Part shown: in pieces, positions 2,336-64,000 of the stretch
How positions within the stretch are numbered: position 1 is the first letter of the stretch
How the letters are laid out: each line of letters starts with the position of its first letter
Assembly (NCBI GenBank): GCA_015178975.1
Contig: WHVD01000012.1
Coordinates: 1,178,001 to 1,242,000, forward strand
Direction of reading: 5' to 3'
Length of the DNA stretch: 64,000 nucleotides
From: Hysterangium stoloniferum
Taxonomy: Eukaryota > Basidiomycota > Agaricomycetes > Hysterangiales > Hysterangiaceae
Position numbers and translations under genes: made by a program
The notes under the pieces: model-generated
Seen by the model: only the letters and a program-made list of their open reading frames with translations
What the model was told of the DNA's origin: nothing
Databases searched by the model: none

Positions 2336-3145
2336 CATACATGGTGGGTTTCCGGAGAAACCTGCAGGGTATCCAGTAGGACTTGGCTTCAGCTTATAGG
2401 CTGCATGCTCACAAGATCGTGTTGTCCAATTTCAGACAGGTGGACGGGAATCCTGGGGAGTCCAGGTGGGGTTCGTGGGTCGAAGGGTGATAGGTCAGAG
2501 GTCATGGGTTGAGAGGTCAGGGAGTTGAGATAAATAAGAGAGATAGATGCGTTGGAGTCTGTGGGCTCTGACTAGCGGGAGCGGTGTACTTCAAGGAGGA
2601 GTTTAGAGCAGAAAATGTATTAGATTACTGGGGGAAATCCAAGCCAATTTTCTGACTGGATTGTATGTACAACATCTGCCAGACTATATAGACCATGGAA
2701 TGAATAACATACCAAATCCAGTAATAATGAAACAAAACTAGCAAAACATAAAACGAGAATAGTAAACACCAAATTGGGTGTTAGGAATGGGATGGAACAG
2801 AGCAGAGTCCGAATCATGACAAATCATAAACCATAATGGGAAATGGAGCAGGAGCAGAGTCCGAATCGTGACAGGTCATTGACTAAAATGGGAACGGGGC
2901 TGAGAGCGATGACAGGTTTTCCAATCGGGGTCCGGTGACTGATGCATGGGATGAGGTCGGACATAGACAGGGATGGAGTCTGGCAGGTATTCTGGTGACT
3001 GATACATGATGTAATGAAGTCGAATGTAGACAAGTCTGACGTTCGGAGTCTGGCAGGAATTCCAGTGAACTGACAATGGGTGCGTATAGGGCACAGGTGC
3101 GTATAAGTTAGTGCCTGGAGTCTGGCAGGAATTCTGGTCGTAACA
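2336..3145 (-). mobile_element. Solo LTR (810 bp) with target-site duplication GCCAG
   Basis: Starts TGTTAGGGTAC and ends GTCGTAACA. It is flanked by the 5-bp direct repeat GCCAG at 2331-2335 and 3146-3150, the signature of an integrase-made insertion. It holds the shared core in reverse (ggacttggcttcagcttata, near 2380). Its outer half resembles 36995-37441. No internal region remains, so it is a solo LTR left by recombination. Confidence 0.85.
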
Positions 3146-3657
3146 GCCAGAGGAAATAGTCTCACTTAAAAGTATGAGGACTTTACCACAAAATTTTGTA
3201 TATTCAATAAATTGTGACTATCCTCCATAGATGGATAACTTTCCTTGTAATCTTGTGTGATGGCCATTACTTCCTCCTTGGCAATTCAGGAGGCAGCTAT
3301 ATTGGACAAAAAACTAAGTATGATCCAAAAGATGACTCATGAATAAATTGAAAAGGGAAGGGAAATATGGTGAGCATTATCCAAGACACCAAAATGTATT
3401 GCGGAAGATTGACAAAATGACATCTTTGTTGGCAATAATAATCCATATGGACCATTCATGAAGTGATAGTTTTTAGATAAGGCTTAATAACTTGCTCTTC
3501 TTTTTCATCTGAGGTCATCACCTCTAAAACTAAGTCTTCAAAAATGTTCGCTGCCTACATTTCATGAATAACAATGACAGGAATATGTTTACAAAAGGAT
3601 ATCAGTGTCTGACTACCCCAAATATATTTGTGCTTACTGCATAAGATGGCTGGCTAG
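3146..3657. other. Unassigned, CpG-poor stretch
   Basis: No gene or recognised repeat. Composition resembles the surrounding repeat-rich DNA. It may contain the lost 3' flank of the NLR gene, but nothing shows this directly. Confidence 0.4.
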
Positions 3658-3847
3658 CTTCCAGCACCTGCACCTCAATCAGTCAATCTACCCAGTTCAC
3701 AATATGTGCCAGGGAAGTTGGTGCTGCACTGAGAGTGTGTGGGCACTCAGTGCCCAGTTGATGATATGTGACAGCAAAGTTGGCCCTGGCACTCAGTGTG
3801 TCTGGGTGTTCAGTGCCTAGGAGCTGCTCCCTGGCCTTCAGCACCTG
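3658..3847 (-). pseudogene. Stranded 3' end of the NLR TPR array
   Basis: In reverse complement this stretch reads as further TPR units of the array at 4442-6125 (QVLKAREQLLGTEHPDTLSA, then a shortened, degenerate unit reaching a stop). It is separated from the main array by the solo LTR at 3848-4441. The copy of ACCTG at 3843-3847 is one half of that LTR's target-site duplication. The stretch is therefore the original continuation of the gene, now downstream of a stop codon supplied by the LTR, and it has decayed: one unit is shortened and the frame ends early. Confidence 0.8.
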
Positions 3848-4441
3848 TGTTACAGCTTGTTCATGGATATCTCAATTCCCATATCTTCCATAACATCTAA
3901 CTTATCCCTGGATAGTCCTACCCTCAATTACCTGTACATCTGACTTCACTTCTGACCCATGGAACATTTGCACTTCCCATACTCCCAACCCACAGAACAT
4001 TTTCAATTCCCATATTTCTGACCCAACCCTTTGTTCTGCATTTGGTAATTGTCTGTTGACAATTAGTCACTCATTTGCTTGTTGTATTTCCATTTCAGAA
4101 CTACTCCCTAATCCATCTTATTATGAACCAAATCCATAGCACAATAGTCTGAGAATCTATATTAGTTTCCATGCATTTGTACTTTACTTTAGATCTGATA
4201 TCAACTTAGTTTCTTATTCCACCTATCTGTCCATACACTTGATATTTGGAACTCTTTGGAACTCTGAATATCCATATCTTCCCATGTAATCCCTTCTTCA
4301 GATATTAAGGACACCCTGAGCATTTACATAAGGATGCAGCAAATAAGCTGAAGCCAATGTCCTTGACCCTATTAGGAACTTTCCAATTCCCAGTCTTTTC
4401 CCAATAGTTTCCGGAATAATTTTCTGACATGGCACTTAACA
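3848..4441 (+). mobile_element. Solo LTR of family B (594 bp) inside the NLR gene, target-site duplication ACCTG
   Basis: Begins TGTTACAGC and ends GGCACTTAACA, matching the LTR at 51946-52488 along most of its length. It is flanked by ACCTG at 3843-3847 and 4442-4446. It sits antisense within the TPR-coding part of the NLR gene. The gene's present stop codon (4374-4372) and last 22 residues come from this LTR. No internal region remains. Confidence 0.9.
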
Positions 4442-7400
4442 ACCTGCACATCTAGTTGTGCTGCATCAGTCCATCTGCCCAGGTGAAAATATGTGACAGC
4501 CAAGTCGACCCTGGCACTCAGTGTGTCTGGGTGTTCAGTGCCTAGAAGCTGCTCCCTGGCTTTCAGCACCTGCACCTCTAGTTGTTCTGCATCAGTCCAT
4601 CTGCCTAGCTGAGAATATATGTTGGCCAAGTTGGCCCTGGCACTCAGTGTGTCAGGGTGTTCAGTGCCTAGGAGCTGCTCCCTGGCCTTCAGCACCTGCA
4701 CCTCTAGTTGTTCTGCATCAGTCAATCTGCCCAGCTGGTAATATGTATTGGCCAAGTTGTCCCTGGTTCTCAGTGTGTCTGGGTGTTCAGTGCCTAGGAG
4801 CTGCTCCATGGCCTTCAGCGCCTGCACCCCTAGTTGTTCTGCATCAGTCCTTCTGCCCATCTTAAGATATGTGAGAGCCAAGTTGGCCCTGGAAATCAGG
4901 GTGTCAGGGTGTTCAGTGCCTAGGAGCTGCTCCCTGGCCTTCAGCACCTGCACCCCTAGTTGTTCTGCATCAGTCCATCTGCCCAGCTTGGAATATGTGA
5001 CAGCCAAGTTGGCCCTGGCACTCAGGGTGGCACGGTGTTCAGTGCCTAGGAGCTGCTCCCTGGCCTTCAGCACCTGCACCCCTAGTTGTTCTGCATCAGT
5101 CCATCTGCCCATCGTAAGATATGTGACAGCCAAGTCGCCCCTGGCTCTCAGTGTGTCTGGGTGTTCAGTGCCTAGGAGCTGCTCACTGGCCTTCAGCACC
5201 TGCACATGCAGTTGTTCTGTATCAGTCAATCTGCCCAGCCGGAAATATGTGGCCGCCAAGTGGGCCCTGGCACTCAGTGTGTCTGGGTGTTCAGTGCCTA
5301 GGAGCTGCTCCCTGGCCTTCAGCACCTGCACCTCTAGTTGTTCTGCATCAGTCCATCTGCCCAGATTGGAATATGTGGCAGCCAAGTCACCCCTGGCTCT
5401 CAGTGTGTCAGGGTGTTCAGTGCCTAGGAGCTGCTCCCTGGCCTTCAGCACCTGCACCTCTAGTTGTTCTGCATCAGTCCATCTGCCCAGCTGACAATAT
5501 GTGTTGGCCAAGTTGGCCCTGGCACTCAGTGTGCTAGGGTGTTCAGTGCCTAGGAGCTGCTCACTGGCCTTCAGCACCTGCACCTCTAGTTGTTCTGCAT
5601 CAGTCCATCTGCCCAGATTGGAATATGTGGCAGCCAAGTTGGCCCTGGCACTCAGTGTGTCAGGGTGTTCAGTGCCTAGGAGCTGCTCCCTGGCCTTCAG
5701 CACCTGCACCTCTAGTTGTTCTGCATCAGTCCATCTGCCTAGCTCAGAATATATGCTGGCCAAGTTGCCCCTGGCTCTCAGTGTGTCTGGGTGTTCAGTG
5801 CCTAGGAGCTGCTCACTGGCCTTCAGCACCTGCACCTCTAGTTGTTCTGCATCAGTCCATCTGCCCAGATTGGAATATGTGGCAGCCAAGTCGCCCCTGG
5901 CTCTCAGTGTGTCAGGGTGTTCAGTGCCTAGGAGCTGCTCCCTGGCCTTCAGCACCTGCACCTCTAGTTGTTCTGCATCAGTCCATCTGCCCAGCTTGGA
6001 ATATGTGGCAGCCAAGTTGCCCCTGGCTCTCAGTGTGTCTGGGTGTTCAGTGCCTAGGATTTTCTGCCTGGATTCTATCACCTCTAATTCTAGCACTTCT
6101 GCATCTGAGTATTTACCAGCCATTTTGTACACTAGGGCAAATCTCTTAGATATATCATCATAGTAGTCTTTTTTTTTTCCAGGAGTCACAGACTGATTTG
6201 CAATAATGTGAGGCAGGACATCTCTTTGGAATAATATATCATTCATTGTGTTTGATTCATTAATGCTGCCTACTATTAATGCTCTGGCTGCATAATAATG
6301 GGGCCTCCAATATATACCCAGTGCCTGATCTCTTATCCACATATGAATTACTGGATGCATTGTCCATGAACATAAACATTTTGTATCAGGATCTCTGGAG
6401 AGAAATGAATAATCACAGAGGACTTGCATGGCTAATCTGAAGGACAGACTTTCCCACTCCTGATCACTATTGCATCTGAGCAGCTGAGCTGGTAGATCTG
6501 ATGCCGTGGTTTTCAATCTCCCATCATAAGTATTCGCAGGTGGAAATTCTGCAGCTCGTTTGAAGATGCTTTCCATGATGTTCTGGTGATGAAAGAACCC
6601 TAACACTTTCAATATGAATAATGCATTTTGTGCTCTTGTTGAGGACATGGCCTGCTTTTCAATCAGATCATATGACACTTTTAAAGTACTATAAACAGTC
6701 TGATTATATCCTAGTGCTCCTTTCAGGGATGGATTGTCTGCATCAAAAAAATATCTTTGATATTTTTCAAGCACAATTAGAAAATCTGACATTCTACAAA
6801 GTCTAGTTGAGATGGCTGTACCAGCAATGTCTAGTGCTAGAGGCAAGAAGCCAAGTTTAATAACAATCTTCTCTGACAATTTCTGTATTGTAACATCAGC
6901 TTTATTGTCACATTTGGCTGCAGCTTGAAAGAGGACAACTGCTTCATTACTCTCCATTGGCACAACCTTCATTGACTCTGTGACATGGCTGGCTAGCCCA
7001 GGATTACGGCTAGTAATCACCACATGAATCTGCCGCATCTGTTGCAAATACTCTTTCACCACTTCATCCATTCCATCAGCATTGTCATAGATGATGAGAC
7101 ACCTCTTTTGAGTTGCTGTAAGCCACCTCAAAACTTCCTCTGGAGACTTTTCAACGCCCTTGGATTTAGCTTCTGGATCATCAGCAATACTTGAAAAATC
7201 ATTTGTCAAAGTTTCTGTGTTTGTACCATCTATCCAGAAAATCCTCCAAAAGTTACTTAATACCTTCCTGTAAGTGCTGGTAAGAATAAATAAATTATTG
7301 GCAGCTTACTAGTCGTTGCTAAGTAGCTCTTCAATGAATTGCAAACAAATCTGTGTTTTCCCAACTCCTCCCATACCATACAAAAGGAACCGTTTCCATG

Positions 7401-8733
7401 CCGGGAGAGAATTGAGGGAGTTCTCTGGAGCAAAAAACTTTCGGAGTCTGATGAGATACTTCTCCTGTCCCACAAAGCTTGGACTAGGACAGAGCTTGGC
7501 AATGTATATAGGCCAATTGGGGGTATCCTCTGCTGAATAATGTTAACCCATGTATGTCTATTTTGTTAACACACACCACTTTGATTATTAAACTTAATCC
7601 ACCGGACATGAACTGCAGTCGGAGCTTTCTTGACCATATCTTGTATAGCACACAACACAGACTTGAAGTCATCATCATTAACAGACTCAAATTTGGACAT
7701 CCCAGTGTGATCCTTATGCATGCCTATCGGTTCTATGTTGAGAGCCCCAGGCACCACAGCAGATGATCTGGGAACAATCTGGATACATCCTATAATTTAA
7801 CACTTCCATCAGGTATGTTAGAATTCTAAAACTCACAGTTGAAATATGACCAGGGAGAGTAGTAGCTAAAGTTTCATAGAAAAATTTCATGTGAAAATGG
7901 GCAGTGATGGTATTAAAATCAGATATTTGTTGCTGTAATAGTTCACAGTGAGCGGTCAAATGCCTCAACAAGATATTATTTGGCCGCCTGCATAGTGAAA
8001 CAAGTTTGGGCACTATGTCTGTTCCTTGGTGAGGGGTACCAAGGAAGAGGATGCCATATGTTGACAAATGAATCCATTTATATGGCAGAAGATGCCCTTC
8101 ATGTGCAACATTAGCTTGTATTAGGGCCTGTTCCCAAACATCAATGAAACATGACAGACATTTTTTTATATGAGGTGACATACACTCTTAAGAATAATGC
8201 CGCCTAGGCTATGCGCGATGAAGATTATGGGACGTTTCTACAGAAAATAGAAAAAAGTCATCAGGAAGCAAGACAAATACCAGTGATTTCAGTCAGTGAA
8301 CCTTAGTATCGTCTGTTTCCCTAGACATGCGAAGTCGTGCAAGGAAATTCTGTGCATGACCATATAAAGTCTGTTCAGACAATGAACTCTCTGTGTAAGC
8401 ATCGTAACCATATGACAAAATGCGCGCTCCAGGTATAGCCTGTGGGAGAAAGTCCCGGAGCCAGAGCTTCTTGTTATCGGCCGTCCAGGACTTTTCGCGA
8501 TGCCCATCGAGTCCATGAATAGCGACAATACTATACAATGTTAGGGAGTGGAAACTGATATGTTTGAACCAAAACACCCACTCTATAGTGGGGGTAGTCC
8601 CCGGTGAAAGTTCCTTAATTCCGAAACCGGGATCATTGTATGTGTTTCCCGGTTGCTCCACGACATCAGGAGAATGACCGCTTCTTGACTTGATGTTAGA
8701 AACACGATGACGCCGCTTCGACAACAACGGCAT
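4372..8733 (-). CDS. NLR-type protein: alpha/beta hydrolase, NB-ARC and TPR domains, C-terminus supplied by an LTR
   Basis: Fungal NOD-like receptor, probably a cytosolic sensor in non-self recognition or programmed cell death (inferred from the family). Exon model: 8733-8582, 8530-8302, 8237-8184, 8127-7837, 7778-7577, 7532-7310, 7255-4372. Introns are 44-64 nt, one with a weak GTTCAC donor. All phases agree, giving 1344 aa. Residues about 50-300 are a serine-hydrolase-like domain (DIVAIHGLDGH, AHSLGG nucleophile elbow, LGTPHQG, DHTGM). NB-ARC follows with P-loop GMGGVGKT (about 362), Walker B CLIIYDNAD (about 436), VVITSRN and LGFLPLAL. From about 762 there are 13 full and one partial 42-residue TPR units ending in the LTR-derived tail. 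An upstream ATG at 8805 is an alternative start; MPLLSK at 8733 fits family N-termini I know. The 3' exon is CpG-poor, the 5' exons are not. Confidence 0.85.
4442..6125 (-). repeat. 126-bp tandem array coding the TPR units
   Basis: Thirteen near-identical 126-bp units plus a partial one, each coding a 42-residue TPR (consensus start LGRWTDAEQLEVQVLKAREQ, then LLGTEHPDTL). Units differ at only a few positions, mainly the Y-x-x stretch before the next LG and the residue after EQL. Such low divergence between units suggests recent amplification or ongoing exchange. CpG is almost absent despite a balanced GC content. Confidence 0.9.
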
Positions 8734-8805
8734 GCTGAGATGGTATGCTAGTAGTAAGAGAGTCCTAAGTGGTGTGTGACTTGTGACATGCTTCTCTGTA
8801 CCCAT

Positions 8806-9682
8806 GGCACCGCCGAGTAACCCTTGCACGTGTCGGAAACAGGAAAGCAAATTCTTCTGATTTAATCTGAACATTGACCTTAGATAATAATAGCATCATT
8901 CGACAATTTCTGATCTGACAATACAAATGTGAAGCACATGGAATAATGTCGATCACAAAGCTGACAATATACGAAGGAATCTCCCGTCGATTGTATCGAG
9001 ACGAGGGGGCCTTTAACAAGTTTCTACACAAGCATATGACGCTTCCAAAGCTGAGAACACTGGTTCAAGTATTGATTTAACAAGGTGGGGATGACTCAGC
9101 GTCAGTCTTGAATAGACTTATGTCTGAGTCGTAGATTGGCTGCAGTCACGGTGAAGTCACACCGCGTCACTCTCGCCAAACCCAAACCACTGTCATCCAT
9201 TCTCACATTTTGCGTTATATTACTAGGCATTTCCCTTCTGCCATCACTCCTAAGAGCACACTCAACCTGCAAGCAATCCGAGATTGGGATGGGCCGTGAC
9301 GCCTTCATCTTCGCTGCTTTCTCTCTGCGGTTGGACGATTGCTCATTGCAACAAGCATCGCTGGAAGTGTTAGGTGTATTTTCATGCATGGATAACTATC
9401 TCTCACACTTGAACATCATCCATAGCCCACGCAGTCCGTACGTCACCTTTACGCAACAGATCGCTCCCATACAACCGAATCTCACCCAGCCGCGCCGTTG
9501 GTTTAGCACTTCATGATCACAAGCTACACCGACTCTCTTTCAAGCATCACGACAACGTCAGAACTACGACCAGCATCACGGACTGTCTCCCATATGTCTC
9601 TACAGCCTTTCCTCCCGCCCCCCACCACCCTGCCACCCTTCAGTCTCAGCGTAATGCTGCTGCCGCAACTTCTGCCGCCGGG
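8806..9682. other. NLR upstream region and unassigned DNA
   Basis: CpG frequency is normal here, unlike the NLR 3' half. Overlapping open frames exist on both strands around 9100-9516, but neither shows a domain or clear splice structure. The region probably includes the NLR promoter. Confidence 0.4.
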
Positions 9683-10255
9683 CTAGCCGCCGTAGGACCC
9701 CTGCGAGTGCCCAGCCATCAGCTCCAGCTGTTTTTGCTCACGCACTTGATTTTTCGCGATTTGTAGAAACATTGCCGGTAAAGAACGGGGAGGCCGATGC
9801 TGGATAACGGCGTCTGCAAGTCTTCGTGGATGCGATTGACCGTGGAGGAAAGAGAAATGACAAGGGTGGCATGGGACTAGATTCAATGCGGATTTAGGCG
9901 AGAGAGAGAAGCTGGATGGATGTATTGGCTTCCTGGTAAGTCTGGCTCTGCCATATACCATTATACCACAAATTGAACATATCTTTTTTGTTCTTGGAGT
10001 GGGTTCTATGGACGAACGCACGTCATGGCTGCAACACGTATATCCAACCCACACTGCTATGCCACCTTCCCAGCTCTTGATCACGCCCCTGCCATCCCTC
10101 TCCCTGCTTGATCCCGCTGCACCACCTATGGTATTATGGGTGTCGAAATACAGCGGAGTGGGCACCCGATGACCAAAGTTACGTCCGAATTGTTCGGCGG
10201 CGGTATTCGCGCGCATGCCTCTACGGATCGCATCCACGAGTACGAGGCATGGCAC
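9683..10255 (-). CDS. Hypothetical open frame, unresolved
   Basis: A 190-residue open frame with normal CpG content. I do not recognise the protein. The C-terminal part (RRLADAVIQHRPPRSLPA to KNQVREQKQLELMAG) is charged and helix-like and reads as plausible protein. The N-terminal and middle parts are low in structure and may contain introns (GT-AG pairs are present). No domain or partner can be named. It could equally be chance coding. Confidence 0.3.
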   Translation of the reverse strand: MPCLVLVDAIRRGMRANTAAEQFGRNFGHRVPTPLYFDTHNTIGGAAGSSRERDGRGVIKSWEGGIAVWVGYTCCSHDVRSSIEPTPRTKKICSICGIMVYGRARLTRKPIHPSSFSLSPKSALNLVPCHPCHFSFLHGQSHPRRLADAVIQHRPPRSLPAMFLQIAKNQVREQKQLELMAGHSQGSYGG

Positions 10256-12338: not shown

Positions 12339-12673
12339 TGTTGAATTTTAGGCTCTTGCAGTCAGACCAATGGCTACCCAACACCGTATACGGATACACC
12401 ACCCTGTATACGGTTATACCAAGCCGCATTATCCCCTGCCTAATATACCACGACTCACTACCATCAACTACGTAATTTAGATATTTTACTATTTAGCCTC
12501 GAACATTTCGATACCCATACCTCAGTCGAATCACTATCTGTGTCGACTGAGGTACGTCACTACGAACTATTTCTCGTCTTCATATTCTTATCTTGATGTA
12601 ATGTAGCGTGTTTCTTACAGGTAGTAAATCTTAGTCGAATCACTATCTGTGTCGACTGAGCGTGTTTCTTACA
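12339..12673 (+). repeat. 5' LTR of the Copia element at 12.3-17.4 kb
   Basis: 335 bp, TGTTGAATTTTAGG...TTTCTTACA. It contains a 10-bp perfect stem-loop at 12520-12552 (CCTCAGTCGA / TCGACTGAGG) and a second, slightly weaker copy at 12630-12660. Confidence 0.92.
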
Positions 12674-12690
12674 GGTTATGGGCCCCGACC
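12674..12690 (+). promoter_or_regulatory. Primer-binding site, half initiator-tRNA type
   Basis: GGTTATGGGCCCC directly follows the 5' LTR. It is complementary to the anticodon stem-loop of initiator methionine tRNA (GGGCCCAUAACC in Drosophila), the half-tRNA priming known for copia. The same motif follows the other Copia 5' LTR at 50909. Confidence 0.75.
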
Positions 12691-15600
12691 AAAGCTGTTA
12701 ATTAACCATCGAAATTGACTGACCAAACAAACTGACCCCGACATTGACCAACTGAACCTGACCCTGACCAACTAAACTTGACCCCAACCAACTGAACCCC
12801 GACCCAACTGACTAAAACAAATATGGCGTCACACCAACCAGCACTATTTATGTTGCAACCTGAGGATCGCCTCGATGGACACAATTGGTTCGCATGGCAC
12901 GACACTATCTGGTCTGCAGCGGGTGCACGAGGCGTCCGAGGGTATATGGATGGAACTATAAAGAAACCTTCCCAACTTGCCCCCAATACTACCCCTGTAC
13001 CAACGACTTACTGGGGATCACACAATCCTTCACCCGAGGAATGGGAACAGCGCGACGCATATGCAAAGGCAATGATTGATCTGAACGTCAAGAATCCTAT
13101 CGGCAATGGCATTCAACCGTCCGATACTGTGAGTGAGGCCTGGTCCGCCCTGAAAGCGATACACAGTGCAACCTCCGATATAGGTTTGCTTAATGCCAAT
13201 AACGATTTGCGTACAATCAAGCATATTGACAGCGCGGACATCATATCCCATTTCACATGACTACGTGAAGGATTGGCAAAGGTCAACGCGCAAGGGGGAA
13301 AAATGGACGATTCTACTTTCCGCACAATTGTGATTGCGTCGATGCCTAAGGAGTGGGATCTAGTAATTGGAACTCTTTTCTCACTGAAGACCTCCAAAGA
13401 AGTAATATCAAACCTCACCTTATATGACAAAACAATCGCACGAAACAGGAAACCCACACCCCAAACTTCACAAGCTCTCGCGACTACTAAATCTAATCGG
13501 TCTAGTGGTGTTTGCTCCAACCCCAACTGTAAATGCATAGGACACACGATTGAGAAGTGTTTCAAAGTCGGAGGGGGAATGGAAGGTCAGTTTCCTGATT
13601 GGTGGAGAAAGAAGGGGACCAGTACTGGTGGAAGTCAAGCCGTGCAGCAACAAAAACCATCCGACGGTGTACCTACCAAATCAACAGCTAACGTGTCGAC
13701 AGCTAACGTGGCAGTCGTGCCCTCTACTCCCTTCACGCCTGGATCTGGAGAATTCTGCGCCCTTATGACGCAGGTAGATCCAACGGTATCCACCAACAGC
13801 ACTATTGTCACCTATGCTGACTCCGCAGCGAGTGATCATTTTTTTATTGATATAAACGATTTTCAAACTTACAAGAATTATAATGGGAAGGATGGGACTA
13901 TGGCTAACAATGGTAGCACTTTTTCAATCTGCGGAAAGGGGACAGTTAGCAAGCGTTGCATATACGATGGACACATTATCAATCTCATATTTCAGGACAC
14001 ACTTCATTGCCCGACCTTATCCCACAACCTCGTGTCCATCGGGAAACTTGACAACAGTGGATGTTATGCAATTTTTGGGGGCGGCGGCGTTACATTTATC
14101 AACCCAGATGGTCATCCATTTATGTATGGGAGGGGAGAAGGAACAATGTACAAGATCGACATCTTTCCCCCAGCTGGCCCCCTCCCAGATAGCGTGCAAT
14201 TATCACCGGAGATGGCAATACACCCAGCAGCCGTAGTCAAGATGACCGCACATGCTTTTTCTGCCAAATCCCACGACTGACCAACCAATATAGATACCTG
14301 GCATCGACGCCTTGGTCACATTCAGTACGATACTGTACAACAAATGGCCAATCACAACGTCGTTCGTGGCATGCAGGTAACCACCATGACGCCCCAACCA
14401 GGGACATGTGAGGGATGTATAATGGGGAAGCATACACACCGCCCATTCTACATCAATGATGAGCGTGAAACAGCAATCGGGGAACGGACCTATGTTGACT
14501 TGTGGGGACCGTCCCGAGTCCAGTCCATCGGCGGGAGAAGTTACATGATGCCGTGTGTCGACGGGTACAGTGGTCACCCGGAAGTTTTCTTCTTGTCCAG
14601 TAAAGAAGCAAAAGGAACCTTAGCCGCATTGAAGCAATATACAGCACTCACTGAACGTCAGACAGGGATGAAGGTGCGCAGGATACGTACTGACGAAGGC
14701 ACCGAATTCTTCAATTCATTGTGGACCACTTACCTCAACGAACAAGGGATTATACACGAAACCACCACTGCATACTCGTCTTCGTCCAACGGCATTGTCG
14801 AGCGATGTCATCGCACCATCATCGAGCGAGTGTGTGTTTGCCTGTATGAGAATAAGTTACCTTCTGCGCTGTGGTGCGAAATAGCAGCAGCGATCGTATA
14901 CGTGATGGATTTTATCCCTACTACCAGAAACCCCAACTCGACTCCTTTTGAGTTGTGGCATGGGAAGAAACCCAATATTTCTCACCTGCGTCCCCTCGGT
15001 TGTGTAGCTTATGCTAAAATCCCCGTCGAAACAGGAGGAGGGCTTAGTAAACTGGATCCACGGTCCATAAAAGGGGTGCATATTGGATATTTCGGATGTG
15101 ACGCTTATAGAATTTACGACCCAGAGATGCGTCGTATTTTTCGCTCGCGTGATGTCATCTTCGAGGAGGGTCGCAGTTGCAAGACACTGATGGAGATATC
15201 GGGCGATGAGGAAATACAGAATCTCGACCACGTTACACTCACCACACCGGTTAACGAGAACACAGACGAACTGAGCAGCGGTTTGGCACCAGTACAAGAC
15301 CACACTTCCGCAATTGCCCCAACCAATATCTCAATCCCAACCGTCACTGAGTCTACCAGCGTGGAATCTGCACCACGTCGTTCCACACATGTATCTGTTC
15401 CAACACAGGCACTTAAGGAATCTCTCACCTCAGAGATGAACATACAGCAAGCCCAGTTGGCAGGGGAAGTGTGGGCTGACGACAGAGTACATAGTGCATT
15501 CCATACTGATGCCATGACAGTTCCAGACCCAACAAACATGTGGCTTCCCAAAACATACAGCGAGGCAATGACGCGTCCTGACATATGGGCGGGCCGGCCC

Positions 15601-17113
15601 TATCAACAAAGAGTTAGACGTCATGAGAAAACACGGGGTGTGGACAGTTATGGACTGTCCTGCTAATGCTAGACTGGTACAAACGCGTTGGACCTTTGCA
15701 CACAAATACAACAGTAACGGCGAACTTATTGCCCGCAAGGCAAGACTCGTCGCTAAAGGTTTTACCCAAATACCCGGTGTCGATTTTTTCGAAACATACG
15801 CCTCTGTCGTTCGGTATGAGTCACTGCGAATGAATTTGGCCATCGCAGCTGCCAAAAACATGGAGTCATGGCAGATTGACTACGTCGCGGCATACCTCAA
15901 TTCAGTTCCACAAGCTGTTACATACATCGAACTTCCTGATGGCGCGAAGGAGGCAGGGAAGGTCGGGAGACTGGAAAGGACTTTATATGGCACCATGGAT
16001 GGTGCCAATAACTGGTGGGGAACTTTGGATAGAGAAATGGGTGAGTTGGGATATTACCAGTCAAAAGCCGACCCATCAGTGCGCTCCCGCCATGCGAATG
16101 GCAGCACCACAATAACATCCACATACACTGACGACATGACCGGAATCTCCTCATCTGAAGAAGAGGCACATAGAGCCAAGGAAGAATTAGGCTGGAAGTA
16201 CGAGACCAAGGACATGGGGGATGCGAATTTAATCCTGGGAATCCGAATCGACCGTGACAGGAAACGTGGCACAATAAAGCTATCACAACGTGCATACCTC
16301 GAACGAATTCTTGAGCGTTTCGGAATGACAGAGTCAAACCCTCGTGGCACACCACTACCCCCAGGCATTACGCTGAACAGGGAGCAGGGGCCCCAGACGA
16401 CTGAAGACCGTGTCTTCATGGCTGATAAGCCATATCGAGAGTTACTGGGATCGATTATGTATGCACAAATTGCAACGCGTCCAGACCTCTCGTACGTGGT
16501 CTCCACACTGAGCAAGTTTGCCTCAAACCCCGGGAAGGCTCACTGGAACGCATTGACCCATGTCTTACGATATATCAAAGGGTCACTCAATTACGGGATT
16601 ACATATGGGGGTTCACTCCAGGATGTCAGGCCAGTCGGGTATGTCGACGCTGATTTCGCAGGGGACACTGACACACGCCGATCCTGTTCCGGACACGTTT
16701 TTATTCAGGCAGGGGGACCTACTGCTTGGGGATCAAAATATCAGCCGACAGTCGCTCTATCAACAACAGAGTCGGAATATATGGCACTCACCCAAGCCAC
16801 GAAGCAGATATTGTGGATGTACGCCGCAATGGATGAAGTCGGTTTTCCACAGCCGAAGCCAGCAATCCTTTACAATGATAATTCAGGCGCAGTTCTCTTA
16901 ACCAAGAATACGAAACACAATGCACGTGTTAAGCATATTGATATACGGTATCACTACATACGGGAACGGGTCGAGGAGGGGGACATCGAAGTCCGTCACG
17001 TCGCATCATCTGATAACCTCGCGGATATGTTCACGAAACCGTTGCCCAAATCAACGCTCATTCAGCAATGTATTGCGCTGCGACTCTGCGAGAGTGCGTC
17101 GAGCCAGGGGGAG

Positions 17114-17441
17114 TGTTGAATTTTAGGCTCTTGCAGTCAGACCAATGGCTACCCAACACCGTATACGGATACACCACCCCGTATACGGTTATACCAAGCC
17201 GCATTATCCCCTGCCTAATATACCACGACTCACTACCATCAACTACGTAATTTAGATATTTTACTATTTAGCCTCGAACGTTTCGATACCCATACCTCAG
17301 TCGAATCACTATCTGTGTCGACTGAGGTACGTCACTACGAACTATTTCTCATCTTCGTATTCTTATCTTGATGTAATGTTTCTTACAGGTAGTAAATCTT
17401 AGTCGAATCACTATCTGTGTCGACTGAGCGTGTTTCTTACA
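17114..17441 (+). repeat. 3' LTR of the Copia element at 12.3-17.4 kb
   Basis: 328 bp, preceded by a purine-rich tract (agggggag). It is nearly identical to the 5' LTR and is followed by the second CTATC. Confidence 0.92.
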
Positions 17442-50504: not shown

Positions 50505-50908
50505 TGTTGGATTAGCAAGCACGATATAGTCTCGCTCCCGCTATATTCGGAGCCTAACCTAAAGTACCGAGCTAGGCAGGTACACACGATATAATATATA
50601 TGCCTTTCTATTTAGTTACTTCCTGTTTTACCCTCTGAAATACACAATGTACGATCATAGATAGAATGTCGATACCTTAAAAACTTAGTATCTATAGCTA
50701 GTGCACCTCAGCTGTTTAGCCCCACTACTGTGTGCAAACACTGAGGTGAGATTACTTTTACAGGTTTACTTAGATACAATACTTATCATACATCCTAGAT
50801 TATTTTCTGTTATCTAGGTAAATATTAGCTGTTTAGCCCCGCTACTGTGTGCAAACACTGAGATTACTTTCTGTTATCTAGCTGTCTAGCATCTATATTA
50901 TTTCAACA
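50505..50908 (+). repeat. 5' LTR of the second Copia element
   Basis: 404 bp. Contains a perfect 8-bp stem CACCTCAG / CTGAGGTG (50704-50711 and 50741-50748). A second copy of the loop region (ctgtttagccccNctactg) lies near 50830. Confidence 0.92.
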
Positions 50909-50924
50909 GGCTATGGGCCCCGTG
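50909..50924 (+). promoter_or_regulatory. Primer-binding site, half initiator-tRNA type
   Basis: GGCTATGGGCCCCG follows the LTR directly, differing by one base from the site of the first Copia element. Confidence 0.7.
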
Positions 50925-51945: not shown

Positions 51946-52488
51946 TGTTACGACCCGTTCCCGGATGTTTCAATATCCAACTTCCGATCTCCGACTACGG
52001 AACATCATAGTTACCGTATCATCCGCATTCTTCCCTTGTTCCGCATTTGGTAATTTGTCTGTTGACAAGTATTCACTCGTTTGTTTGTTATATTCCCATT
52101 TCAGAATATTGTCACCCTAATATGTCTTATTGTATTTCCGTTTTAAGAACACTTCTGTTTCTGTCTTATTATGGTCTTAGTTTGTAGTACAATAATGAGT
52201 AGACTTATATTAGTTTCTGTGAATTTGTACTTTACCTTAGATCAATATCGACTTAGTTTCTTATTCCTTCTCCCGTCTTTCTGTACACTCGATATTCGGA
52301 ACTCTTAGGAACTCTGAATATCTGTATCTTCCATTGTAAGTCTCACCTCTGAAATTAAGGACTTTGAGCATTTGCGTAGAGGTGCAGCACATAAGCTGAA
52401 GCTGACGTCCTGACCCTATCCGATAGTTCCCGACTTCCCGGTGACTTTCCAATAGTTCCAGAATAAGTTCCCGACACGGCACTTAACA
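51946..52488 (+). mobile_element. Solo LTR of family B (543 bp), target-site duplication TGTTC
   Basis: Begins TGTTACGACCCG and ends GGCACTTAACA. TGTTC lies at 51941-51945 and 52489-52493. Inserted in the gag-protease region of the second Copia element. Contains the core cacataagctgaagctgacg near 52389. Confidence 0.93.
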
Positions 52489-56729: not shown

Positions 56730-57133
56730 TGTTGGATTAGCAAGCACGATATAGTCTCGCTCCCACTATATTTGGAGCCTAACCTAAAGTACTGAGCTAG
56801 GCAGGTACACACGATATAATATATACGCCTTTCTATTTAGTTACTTCCTGTTTTACCCTCCGAAATACGCAACATACGATCATAGATAAAATGTCGATAC
56901 CTTAAAAACTTAGTATCTATAGCTAGTGCACCTCAGCTGTTTAGCCCCGCTACTGCGTGCAAACACTGAGGTGAGATTACTTTTACAGGTTTACTTAGAT
57001 ACAATACTTATCATGCATCCTAGATTACTTTCTGTTATCTAGGTGACTATTAGCTGTTTAGCCCCACTACTGCATGCAAACACTGAGATTACTTTCTGTT
57101 ATCTAGCTGTCTAGCATCTATATTATTTCAACA
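56730..57133 (+). repeat. 3' LTR of the second Copia element
   Basis: 404 bp, preceded by gagggggag. Same stem-loop and partial duplication as the 5' LTR. Confidence 0.92.
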
Positions 57134-57267
57134 GACAACACTAAAGTGAAATTCACTGAAGCATGTCCTTGTGTTGGGAACTCGTTGGGCATAGTGGAAT
57201 GTGACATGTACGGTGACTGAATTAATATCACGAGACATACTTATAGAGAGTATTTGCAATTAATGAA

Positions 57268-61313: not shown

Positions 61314-64000
61314 TTACTGTTGGTGCTGATGGTGACAATAGTGGATCCCATTGTCAGGGTACGCTGCTTCACAATCATCGCAATACAAGTACCTGCACGA
61401 ATCCTCCACATCCATGGCACCTTCAAAAGAGGAAGAAGAGGGCATGCTTGACCCAGACATGACTACAGCTGCTAGCGAGGAGCTCATGGAATCTACTGAC
61501 ATGAAACGGTTGGGTCGGGATGATGCAGATGATAATGGTTTGCGGCGACTGAGGTTGGAAATGAGTTGTGAGACAGAGGGTGGGCTTGAAGACATCTGTG
61601 CTGGAGGGGCTCTAGATGGGGTTACTATGTACATATATTAGTTTAAAACCTCTGATGCAAATAAATATTAAACCTTCACGAAAATCAGATGGGAATTCCC
61701 TAGCCCGGTGGTTGCGGTGTAATGGGTGACGAATGGTGGCCAAACCTCTTGTAAAAGTTGGAACAATTGCTGGTTGTGTTTCTGTACACAATATACAGTG
61801 ACTTACAAAATGTATCCAATGTTTTGTAGTTTCAGCTTATATATGCTATATCCCAGTAGATAAAATAGTAGAAATCACCAAACTATTTGTGAACATGACC
61901 AATCATGTATATATTTATATGGTAGAACTATATTATGTAATATCCATATATGGAAACACTATGAATATTTTAATGGAGAGGGTTCATTGGATACGTTTTG
62001 TAACTGACAGGTTCTGGCATGAAAACCATGTGCCTATGTTGATTGTTTGCATTTGTTTATGTTTTTCAACATGTCATGTGATCATTCTATACAACAGTAT
62101 AAGTAGAAGGGCTTTCTCAGCTAAGATTCCCTCAATTCTAACTATGCATCCCCTTTCCACTCCTGCCCAGTATGAGATTCTTTCTCTACTTGATGCTGGC
62201 CATTCTGCCAGACATATTTCAGTTTCTACTGGCTATAGTTATACTACTATCTCTAGACTTCGTTATAAACACTGTTCCCACCTTTCTAAGTCCTCTGGTG
62301 GTCGTCCTTCCAAACTCTCCACAGCCAACATCCATTTTGCACAACGCCTTATCAGCTCTGGAAAGGCTGATACAGCTGTAGATGCAACAAAGGCACTTTG
62401 CACTATCACCAACCAGTCACTCAATCCTCAAACAGTGTGTCGTGGACTCAAGGCAGCTGGGATGAAGCCTGTGGTAAAGAAGAAAAGGCCTCTTCTTTCT
62501 AAGAGACATACATAGGAAGGAGAGGATGGATTTTGCTTTGGCACATCAGGATTGGACTGTGGAGGATTGGAAGAAGGTGGTGTGGTCTGATGAGACCAAA
62601 ATTAATAGGCTGGGGTCAGATGGCAGGAAGTGGGTGTGGAAAAAGGCAGGGGAGGGCTTGAGTGACAGACTGGTTGAGGGAACCCTGAAGTTTGGTGGTG
62701 GATCTTTAATGGTTTGGGGGTGCATGCTGTGGGAGGGGGTTGGGTATGCATGCAAGATTGATGGAAGGATGGATGGGGATCTCTACATCCAGATTCTGGA
62801 GGACGACCTGCAAGCCAGTCTTAAAGACTATGGTAAATCTGCCAATGGTATCATCTTCCAGCAGGACAATGACCCCAAGCATACCTGCAAGAAGGCCCAG
62901 AATTGGTTCCAAGAAAATGGTTTCAGGGTTCTCTCATGGCCAGCACAGTCTCCTGACTTGAATCCCATTGAACACCTATGGAATCACCTGAAGAGGAGGT
63001 TGGCAGGGTATGAGAATGCACCCCAGGGGATGGAAGAGTTGTGGGAGAGGGTGGTGGATGAATGGTACAGGATTGATGCAAAGGTGTGTCAGGATTTGAT
63101 TGAAAGTATGCCTAGGAGAGTTTCAGATGTATTAAAGGCAAAGGGTGGCTACACTAAGTACTAAATACTAGTAATTTACTGCCTAAATGTGTCAGTTACA
63201 AAATGTATCCAATGAACCCTCTCCATTGAAATATTCATAGTGTTGCCATATATGGATATTATGTAATATAATTCTACCGGATAAATATATACATGATAGG
63301 TCATGTTCACAAATACTTTGGTGATTTCTACTATTTTATCCACTGGGATATAGCATATATAAGCTGAAACTACAAAACATTGGATACATTTTGTAAGTCA
63401 CTGTATCAGTAATTTGAGATAAGAGGAAGTTGCATTTAACATACCACCATCTGGATCAAAACTAGGATAGTCGGCACTCATAGTATGACAATCTTCATAT
63501 TTATCATCAAAACATACTGTAAAATTTTCAAATGTCGCAATGAATGTCAAAAAAAGAAAAAAAAAGAAAAGTAGAGAATTACCGCATAAGCCACAATCGT
63601 CACATTTAGCAATAGTCCATTCCCTATGTTCCCGGATATCAGCGAAAATAGGGTAGTTGGGTGAGTATATAGTGCAGAAGCACTCAAACTTTTGCTGCCG
63701 ATGGCGGTTGTACTTTTTCAGCCCTTTAGGGTGAATGCGGTGCCCTCTCGATAGTGGGCTGTCCAAGATTTTGTCAATATAGACACAATAAGAATGAAAT
63801 AAATAAGAAGCACTAGGGAAACTCAGCAGCTTCGCCTTGTGGACGGTTATAAAAAACAAGATTCTTTGACTGCGCTTGAAGTTCAAGGCACTCTGCAAAG
63901 AGGTCCCGTCCAAATTCACGAATATACTGTTTTATCTTGTGTACTTGCTCATTGGCGACATACTGGTGCCTGGGATATCTGGGATGAGGGTTTCAGTGAT
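61314..64000 (-). CDS. Conserved-looking hypothetical protein, 5' partial, with a transposon in one intron
   Basis: Not recognised by family. Exons seen: from beyond 64000 (or an acceptor near 63975) to 63814, then 63758-63583, 63516-63445, 61781-61674, 61624-61314 (stop). Introns are 55, 66, 1663 and 49 nt with GT-AG ends, and all phases agree. The 1663-nt intron holds a Tc1 element; without it and one TA it would be 53 nt. The protein has a helical charged N-part (HKIKQYIREFGRDLFAECLE), then FECFCTIYSPNYPIFADIRE, CDDCG, YEDCHTMSADYPSFDPDGG. A Ser-rich region follows, and a Cys/His-rich end (CRYLYCDDCEAAYPDN, HYCHHQHQQ) that might bind zinc. Frame continuity across four joints argues it is real. 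Confidence 0.7.
61796..63403 (+). mobile_element. Tc1/mariner DNA transposon (1608 bp) with TA target-site duplication
   Basis: Terminal inverted repeats of about 214 bp (61796-62009 and 63190-63403) begin CAGTGACTTACAAAATGTAT. TA flanks at 61794-61795 and 63404-63405. The inverted repeats are still similar, so insertion is fairly recent. It carries one transposase gene with a frameshift, antisense to the host gene around it. Confidence 0.95.
62144..63164 (+). pseudogene. Tc1-type transposase, DD34E, one frameshift
   Basis: First part 62144-62515 (123 aa from MHPLSTPAQYEIL) is the paired helix-turn-helix DNA-binding region (LLDAGHSARHISVSTGYSYT). Second part about 62518-63164 carries the catalytic domain: WSDETK, IFQQDNDPKHT and SPDLNPIEHLWN. 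Thirty-four residues lie between the second Asp and the Glu, so DD34E, all three present. The two parts are in different frames, joined near 62508-62520 (KRH then RKERMDFA), a single small indel. The element is probably non-autonomous as it stands unless a small intron removes the shift, for which no good splice sites were seen. Confidence 0.9.

What the first reader, a model, noticed from the sequence alone, without database searches (positions are those of the whole stretch)
3658..6125. NLR gene truncated by a solo LTR that now supplies its C-terminus and stop
The LTR at 3848-4441 is bounded by ACCTG duplications, with TPR-coding sequence on both sides. Reading the gene across the junction, the last 22 residues (VKCHVRKLFRKLLGKDWELE and two Ser) and the stop come from LTR sequence. 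The original 3' units are stranded at 3658-3847 and have decayed since. Loss of the terminal TPR units may change ligand binding or make the gene a relic.
Basis: seen in the sequence. Interest (0 to 1): 0.72.

Follow-up and report, generated by a model that had tools for sequence, protein, structure and literature searches.

The report
Jumping-gene remnant ends a fungal receptor
A leftover piece of a retrotransposon sits inside a fungal immune-receptor-like gene and now writes the last stretch and the stop of its protein, and because the gene was later copied together with that piece and both copies stayed readable, the change looks tolerated rather than fatal.

Summary
A 594-bp solo LTR (3848-4441; TGTTA...TAACA ends, ACCTG duplication) splits a 126-nt TPR array. 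The array ORF runs 22 codons into the LTR and stops there (4372-4374). I added four results. (1) The gene is a 7-exon, 1351-aa hydrolase-like/NB-ARC/TPR NLR (splice sites shared with paralogs). (2) The nearest paralog, about 224 kb away on the same contig, carries the same LTR at the same nucleotide and also ends in LTR-coded residues, so the insertion predates a segmental duplication. (3) Between the copies, 788 pre-TPR codons show no indel and no stop, against 10 indels in 1.7 kb of non-coding DNA. Amino-acid constraint is clear in the other copy (omega 0.32) but not distinguishable from neutral in the window copy (0.82). (4) The DNA beyond the LTR is the old C-terminus: open in the other copy, broken by two deletions here. 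'Truncated with an LTR tail' is supported; 'relic' is not shown. AlphaFold predicts that the tail finishes the last TPR helix. Unresolved rival: the duplication reads CAG|GT on both sides, so exact splicing of the LTR is formally possible, though the donor is weak and the intron would be about tenfold too long. RNA would decide.

The parts
3848..4441 (-). Solo LTR, 594 bp, TGTTAAG...GTAACA in gene sense (its own transcriptional orientation not established)
3843..3847 (.). Target-site duplication, left copy (ACCTG; CAGGT in gene sense)
4442..4446 (.). Target-site duplication, right copy (ACCTG; CAGGT in gene sense)
4375..4440 (-). LTR-coded last 22 residues VKCHVRKLFRKLLGKDWELESS
   Evidence: predicted to continue helix B of the last TPR
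4372..4374 (-). LTR-supplied stop codon (TAA)
4442..6065 (-). TPR array in frame, 126-nt units (13 GTEH motifs), TPR_10/TPR_12
4372..7276 (-). Exon 7 (rest of NB-ARC region, TPR array, LTR tail)
7310..7532 (-). Exon 6 (P-loop GMGGVGKT)
7577..7778 (-). Exon 5
7837..8127 (-). Exon 4
8184..8237 (-). Exon 3 (AHSLGG)
8302..8530 (-). Exon 2 (DUF676/PGAP1-like hydrolase region)
8582..8733 (-). Exon 1 with proposed ATG (MPLLSKRRHR...; start codon inferred)
3602..3847 (-). Stranded old C-terminus: remnants of terminal TPR units and old tail, old stop TGA at 3604-3602; broken here by a 1-bp and an 11-bp deletion relative to copy B and paralogs
3137..3601 (-). Old 3' flank, homologous to 3' flanks of LTR-free paralogs (outer ~90 bp is a dispersed repeat)

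Best explanation
A fungal NLR gene (serine-hydrolase-like N-terminus, NB-ARC, 126-nt TPR array) took a retrotransposon insertion in helix B of a near-terminal TPR unit. LTR-LTR recombination left a solo LTR (inferred). Translation reads 22 codons into the LTR and stops, so roughly the last two TPR units and an old tail of about 20 residues are lost; the LTR-coded residues finish and extend the interrupted helix and cap the array (predicted). The locus was then duplicated with the LTR inside, and both copies stayed readable, so the truncated receptor is most likely still made. The array keeps about 13 units, consistent with a recognition surface that varies in unit number anyway. Shown: insertion, tail, duplication, open frames, old 3' end. 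Inferred: that the transcript ends in or past the LTR without splicing it, that the protein is stable, and any effect on ligand binding.
For: Same LTR, same junction in paralog B (C24:954795-955883). Full 7-exon ORFs of 1351 and 1345 aa, splice sites shared with paralogs. No indel in 2364 bp of pre-TPR coding sequence versus 10 in 1709 bp of chosen non-coding stretches (Fisher p 1.7e-4); combined omega 0.53, p 0.0013 (0.0025, and 0.016 at the most cautious transition bias tried). LTR divergence A-B (JC 0.107) is no smaller than that of the stranded piece and 3' flank (0.043, 0.058), so the LTR was not copied over recently. AlphaFold: final helix spans residues 177-200 of 209, of which 188-200 are LTR-coded; mean pLDDT 90 (181-190) and 84 (191-200).
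Against: On the window copy's own branch substitutions look near-neutral (14 syn/29 non, omega 0.82, p 0.33), unlike copy B (25/20, omega 0.32, p 1.2e-4). The 48 tail-coding bases shared by the copies differ at 3 sites, all amino-acid changing, and B's tail is 6 residues shorter, so the tail sequence itself shows no conservation. The 3' UTR would be long and might expose the message to decay (inference). No RNA data. The five AlphaFold models differ (mean pLDDT 91.5, 87.8, 78.8, 74.3, 74.0) and the alignment held only 8 stretches of the same array.
Confidence: 0.7

Rival explanations
1. The LTR is removed as an intron. In gene sense the 5-bp duplication is CAGGT on both sides, so CAG|GT-LTR-CAG|GT splicing (599 nt here, 518 nt in copy B) would restore the old frame exactly, as for TSD-borne Introners.
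For: Junction geometry and frame fit exactly; the exon-side CAG is ideal (recalled consensus); intron 2 of this gene also has a GTT donor, present in 9 of the 10 loci compared; copy B's stranded piece is still open to the old stop. Passages of PMC9860276 describe splice sites recruited from TSDs in Introners.
Against: Donor GTTGTT/GTTGCT is weak (recalled consensus); the introns compared in the clade measure 33-67 nt. In the window copy the spliced product would run into a frameshift and early stop. Changes in the stranded piece look unconstrained: 7 differing codons, 5 non-synonymous and 2 synonymous. An open stretch of 85 codons is within neutral expectation for copy B (my estimate from the indel rate).
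Confidence: 0.12
2. The gene in the window is a dying pseudogene: the LTR disabled it and the open frame is only a short-term survivor, while copy B alone is kept.
For: Window-copy branch omega 0.82, not different from neutral (p 0.33), and different from copy B (Fisher p 0.034); its stranded 3' end has two deletions. Expected nonsense changes on this branch are only 1.8, so their absence says little (P 0.16).
Against: No stop in 1351 codons and no indel against B in the exons before the LTR. With the lineage's own indel rate (2 in 548 bp, polarised by eye on the alignment) about 8.6 would be expected in the pre-TPR coding sequence, but that rate rests on 2 events (Fisher p 0.035). Copy B bears the same LTR and is constrained, so the LTR itself is not disabling.
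Confidence: 0.15
3. Assembly artefact: LTR and array units were mis-joined.
For: Tandem units of about 90% identity are hard to assemble.
Against: Two loci about 224 kb apart carry the same structure with JC divergence of about 0.04-0.11 outside the array; TSD and ends are exact.
Confidence: 0.02

Closest known systems
sesB-like/NB-ARC/TPR NLRs of fungi, e.g. Podospora Pa_2_10340, with highly internally conserved repeats (PMC4986451, passages)
   Same: N-terminal serine-hydrolase-like domain, NB-ARC, TPR_10-type array of near-identical repeats; repeat number varies between strains there
   Different: Here the array is cut by a solo LTR; that paper's main text has no word beginning 'transposon' or 'pseudogene'. 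That sesB-like and DUF676-like are the same kind of domain is recalled, not tested
LTR-terminated NLR transcripts RPP7/COPIA-R7 and RPP4/COPIA4 of Arabidopsis (PMC7529245, passages)
   Same: LTR in an NLR gene supplies the 3' end of transcripts
   Different: There the LTR provides polyadenylation in an intron or 3' UTR; here it supplies coding residues and the stop. Polyadenylation was not testable here
Introners with splice sites taken from the TSD (PMC9860276, passages)
   Same: Insertion into a CAGGT target gives CAG|GT on both sides
   Different: Splicing not shown here; the element is an LTR, a term that does not occur in that paper's main text
TPR domains of Podospora putative kinesin light chain (4y6c) and of KLC1/KLC2 (sequence match)
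   Same: Same TPR sequence family
   Different: Matches cover array residues; I did not look at the ends of those chains
PLP-1/SEC-9 allorecognition NLR of Neurospora (PMC10197012, passages)
   Same: Fungal NLR whose C-terminal sensor domain is held to recognise the ligand
   Different: Patatin N-terminus; function of the present gene untested

Membership tests
LTR retrotransposon remnant (solo LTR) | TG...CA ends and a short fixed-length target-site duplication | tested here: met
   TGTTA...TAACA; perfect 5-bp TSD in 7 of 13 sequences scanned, 5 independent insertions; 6 of 13 gave none with the strict motif
LTR retrotransposon remnant (solo LTR) | Dispersed family in the genome | tested here: met
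   49 matching pieces, 40 of 1760 candidates scored
LTR retrotransposon remnant (solo LTR) | Full-length relatives with internal gag-pol, primer-binding site and polypurine tract | not tested
   No systematic search was made and no full-length element of this family was seen among the loci fetched; the LTR-LTR recombination step is inferred
Fungal NB-ARC/TPR NLR | NB-ARC domain with P-loop | tested here: met
   PF00931 E 3.6e-11, 43.2 bits against cut-off 23.5; GMGGVGKT in exon 6
Fungal NB-ARC/TPR NLR | C-terminal TPR repeats with high internal conservation | tested here: met
   PF13374 E 2.7e-153; 300-nt stretches of the array mostly 87-93% alike
Fungal NB-ARC/TPR NLR | N-terminal effector domain of the serine-hydrolase (sesB/DUF676) type | tested here: met
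   PF05057 21.0 bits, just above its cut-off of 20.3; PGAP1 16.9 bits, below its cut-off of 24.3; AHSLGG in exon 3. Marginal
TSD-borne Introner (rival) | Element is spliced out of the mRNA | not testable with these tools
   No RNA data; only the geometry was checked

The most novel reading that the evidence does not exclude
One insertion created a two-ended receptor. Because the LTR landed exactly in a CAG|GT site of a TPR unit, the same gene could give a truncated protein with an LTR-coded cap when the LTR is retained and, in copy B, a full-length array when it is spliced. If repeat arrays with a CAGGT in most units are standing landing sites, transposons would be a regular route by which fungal NLRs change the end of their sensor: among 10 loci of this clade, four events at different sites (the LTR in A/B, and repeated DNA in L045, L046 and L050) have replaced or interrupted the end of the array.
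Probability: 0.1. Interest if true: 0.7.

Novelty: new member of a known kind. Interest (0 to 1): 0.45.

Why it matters
It is an ordered case (insertion, then duplication, then a retained frame) showing that a fungal NLR can lose the end of its TPR sensor to a transposon and stay readable. It offers a direct test of whether the terminal repeats matter. The clade around it shows repeated replacement of array ends by repeated DNA.

Tried and rejected
Relic reading: tested with frame, indel and omega analyses and not supported for the pair, though the window copy alone is ambiguous. Recent transfer of the LTR between copies by gene conversion: unlikely, since the LTR (JC 0.107) is among the most diverged non-coding stretches; of those measured only intron 4 (58 bp, 0.111) is as high. 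Independent insertions in A and B: rejected, because the junction and both flanks are shared. The third nearest LTR copy (C24:1168223, 86% over 364 bp) has no NLR sequence beside it. Search for further LTR-TPR junctions: a 24-mer with up to 3 mismatches gave 6 places; in the matched letters only A and B carry the TPR side. That misses more diverged junctions, and one search scored only 40 of 1760 LTR candidates. A full-length element of the family was not seen among the loci fetched, but was not searched for systematically; most flanks are private. Literature: (LTR, NLR, truncation or repertoire terms) returned 0 or 1 paper each; one search matched 281 papers, of which I saw 12 listings and opened one. 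None seen is a direct parallel, but this covers an open-access library and mostly listings. The organism was not identified; 'fungal' rests on the gene and repeat types and is not a taxonomic test.

What the indel comparison leaves out: the non-coding set was the six introns, part of the 5' flank, most of the LTR, the stranded piece and the 3' flank, chosen by me; it omits window 8734-9325 and the 92-bp LTR deletion, which hold 6 further gap openings and would strengthen the contrast.

Full report
What is there. The window is G000:C24:1178001-1242000, part of an unnamed 111-Mb genome in 554 contigs. At 3848-4441 lies a 594-bp element with TGTTA...TAACA ends between two ACCTG copies. TPR-coding units of 126 nt run from about 6065 down to 4442 and resume at 3847. 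The ORF on the minus strand (4372-7209, 945 aa) crosses the right-hand junction in frame: codon 4443-4441 is two bases of target-site duplication plus one of LTR, 22 further codons are LTR, then TAA.

Is it a solo LTR? The family gives 49 matching pieces in the genome, with 40 of 1760 candidates scored. I looked for the end motif plus a 5-bp duplication in 13 sequences: 7 show it perfectly, including a second member inside the window at 51947-52488 with TGTTC duplications; after merging A with B and L054 with L055 this is five independent insertions. Six gave none under that strict motif. Flanks are mostly private. No full-length element was seen, and none was systematically sought, so the origin by LTR-LTR recombination is inferred.

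The gene. Using splice sites shared with paralogs I built a 7-exon model of 1351 aa. The six introns (33-64 nt in the window copy, 33-67 nt over the ten loci compared) are at the same places in the paralogs; the exception is L049, which lacks the region of introns 1 and 2 and whose intron 4 does not align cleanly at its end. The protein has a DUF676/PGAP1-like hydrolase region (21.0 bits against a cut-off of 20.3, so marginal), NB-ARC (3.6e-11) and TPR_10 repeats (2.7e-153). The start codon is inferred. The genome has 114 matches to the NB-ARC segment (112 of 119 candidates scored); I studied 10 loci in detail: the window copy A, copy B and L043-L050.

The insertion predates a duplication. The best paralog (91% over 363 aa) is C24:954795-955883, inverted; LTR to LTR the two copies are about 224 kb apart. 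It carries the LTR at the identical junction, minus about 92 bp from its middle, with colinear flanks on both sides (window 4391-8937, 3137-4301, 9325-9801 and 1893-2325; alignment). Its protein (1345 aa) ends ...VQVAKCHIRKLFQKLLGKD: the deletion joint makes a stop six residues earlier. Five of the eight other paralogs fetched show the old 3' end running on from their arrays without the LTR.

The stranded 3' end is the old end. The sequence beyond the LTR is homologous to the 3' ends of L043, L044, L047, L048 and L049. A genome search with 3137-3660 found the same region, beyond its outer repeat, at nine further places, seven of them at or beside loci studied here. L049 has a tail ...LEASKPSYAVNTDTVVALRH that resembles the stranded one. 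In copy B the stranded piece is open for 85 codons to ...TVSTDTFGTVRH; in A it has a 1-bp and an 11-bp deletion and an early stop. A second stranded unit is strongly diverged in both copies, so that divergence predates the duplication and cannot be placed before or after the LTR.

Relic or not. Between A and B, 788 pre-TPR codons show dS 0.087, dN 0.032 (omega 0.37 by Nei-Gojobori; 0.53 with a transition bias of 3.8). There are no indels in those 2364 bp nor in the array, against 10 in 1709 bp of introns, LTR, stranded piece and flanks (Fisher p 1.7e-4). Differences polarised by the majority of the eight paralogs (some of them pseudogenes) fall 14 synonymous/29 non-synonymous on A, 25/20 on B, and 4/8 unassigned. 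A is thus not distinguishable from neutral (omega 0.82, p 0.33), B is constrained (0.32, p 1.2e-4), and the two differ (p 0.034). For comparison, four pairs among L043-L046 and L048 lie at 0.47-0.64, and the stop-bearing pair L047/L049 at 0.69. My reading: the LTR-tailed form has been kept readable in both copies and is clearly under selection in B; the window copy may be relaxing. LTR divergence (0.107) exceeds that of the neighbouring 3' flank (0.058) and stranded piece (0.043), though intron 4 is as high (0.111); the LTR was therefore not recently copied between the loci.

The tail. The LTR residues follow the middle of helix B of the last TPR. AlphaFold on the last 209 residues (alignment of 8 stretches of the same array, none of the other seven covering the tail) gives a last helix at 177-200, of which 188-200 are LTR-coded, then a low-confidence end (block mean 57); best model pLDDT 91.5, other models 87.8 to 74.0. 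So the tail plausibly completes and caps the repeat. Its sequence is not conserved: 3 differences in 48 bases between A and B, all amino-acid changing.

Rival: splicing. In gene sense the duplication is CAGGT, so CAG|GT-LTR-CAG|GT could be removed exactly (599 nt in A, 518 in B). That is the geometry of TSD-borne Introners (passages of PMC9860276). Against it are the weak donor, the length, A's broken downstream frame, and unconstrained changes downstream (5 non-synonymous and 2 synonymous codons). I give it 0.12.

Context in the clade. L045, L046 and L050 also have array ends replaced or interrupted by DNA that is repeated in the genome: 41 further matching pieces each for L045 and L046 (40 candidates scored in each search), and 100 further matches for the in-frame 411-aa tail of L050, which has no Pfam match. 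L046's insert holds a relative of that L050 tail protein (57% and 48% in two pieces), so those two events, at different sites of the unit, involve one repeat family. L050's breakpoint is at CAGGTG, the same phase of the unit as the LTR in A/B. L043, L044, L047 and L049 have stops or frameshifts. Of the 10 loci, only L048 runs open from NB-ARC to the old end. Array ends in this clade are thus often lost, which makes the present case one of a series. The independence of the events is inferred from their different sites and repeats.

Literature. The architecture and the high internal conservation of the repeats are described for fungi (PMC4986451, passages). LTRs that end NLR transcripts are known in Arabidopsis (PMC7529245, passages). 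The C-terminal sensor role is reviewed in PMC10197012 (passages). Searches for LTRs that truncate NLRs or fungal genes gave no direct parallel (with 0 or 1 paper each, 281 papers of which 12 listings were seen).

Verdict. Interest 0.45.

Noticed in passing
L050:5300-6655 (C1:1484001-1493500): A related NLR whose TPR array runs in frame into a 411-aa stretch with 100 other matches in the genome and no Pfam match; the breakpoint is at the same CAGGTG phase as the LTR in the window.
   Followed up: partly
L046, oriented 5951-9243 (C1:1351001-1360500): About 3.2 kb of inserted DNA within the TPR array of another paralog, holding a relative of the L050 tail protein, with TPR units resuming beyond it; a CTTGG stretch lies on both sides.
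   Followed up: partly
L045, oriented 7145-7501 (C356): Open frame of 1657 codons from NB-ARC ends in ...DTLSAMV and stops where repeated DNA begins.
   Followed up: partly
51947-52488: Second solo LTR of the same family (TGTTC duplications) inside a copia-type element whose own LTRs (50505-50909, 56730-57134) are 95.6% alike.
   Followed up: partly
12339-17441: ORFs of copia type by look (Pol_BBD found in 13273-14280; the rest from recall) between direct repeats 12339-12673 and 17114-17441, 96.7% alike.
   Followed up: no
61793-63406: Inverted repeats of 217 bp, 95% alike, around two ORFs that look like parts of a Tc1/mariner-type transposase (name from recall).
   Followed up: no
537-1007 and L042:3306-3776: 471 bp at 99.8% identity about 5 kb apart, which may be a young LTR pair spanning the window's left edge.
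   Followed up: no
3137-3232: About 90-bp dispersed repeat: some 30 further places at about 90% identity among the 40 candidates scored.
   Followed up: no
4447-6065 versus copy B: The TPR arrays differ more between the two copies (JC 0.137) than any non-coding stretch measured, without indels: rapid or concerted change of the sensor.
   Followed up: no
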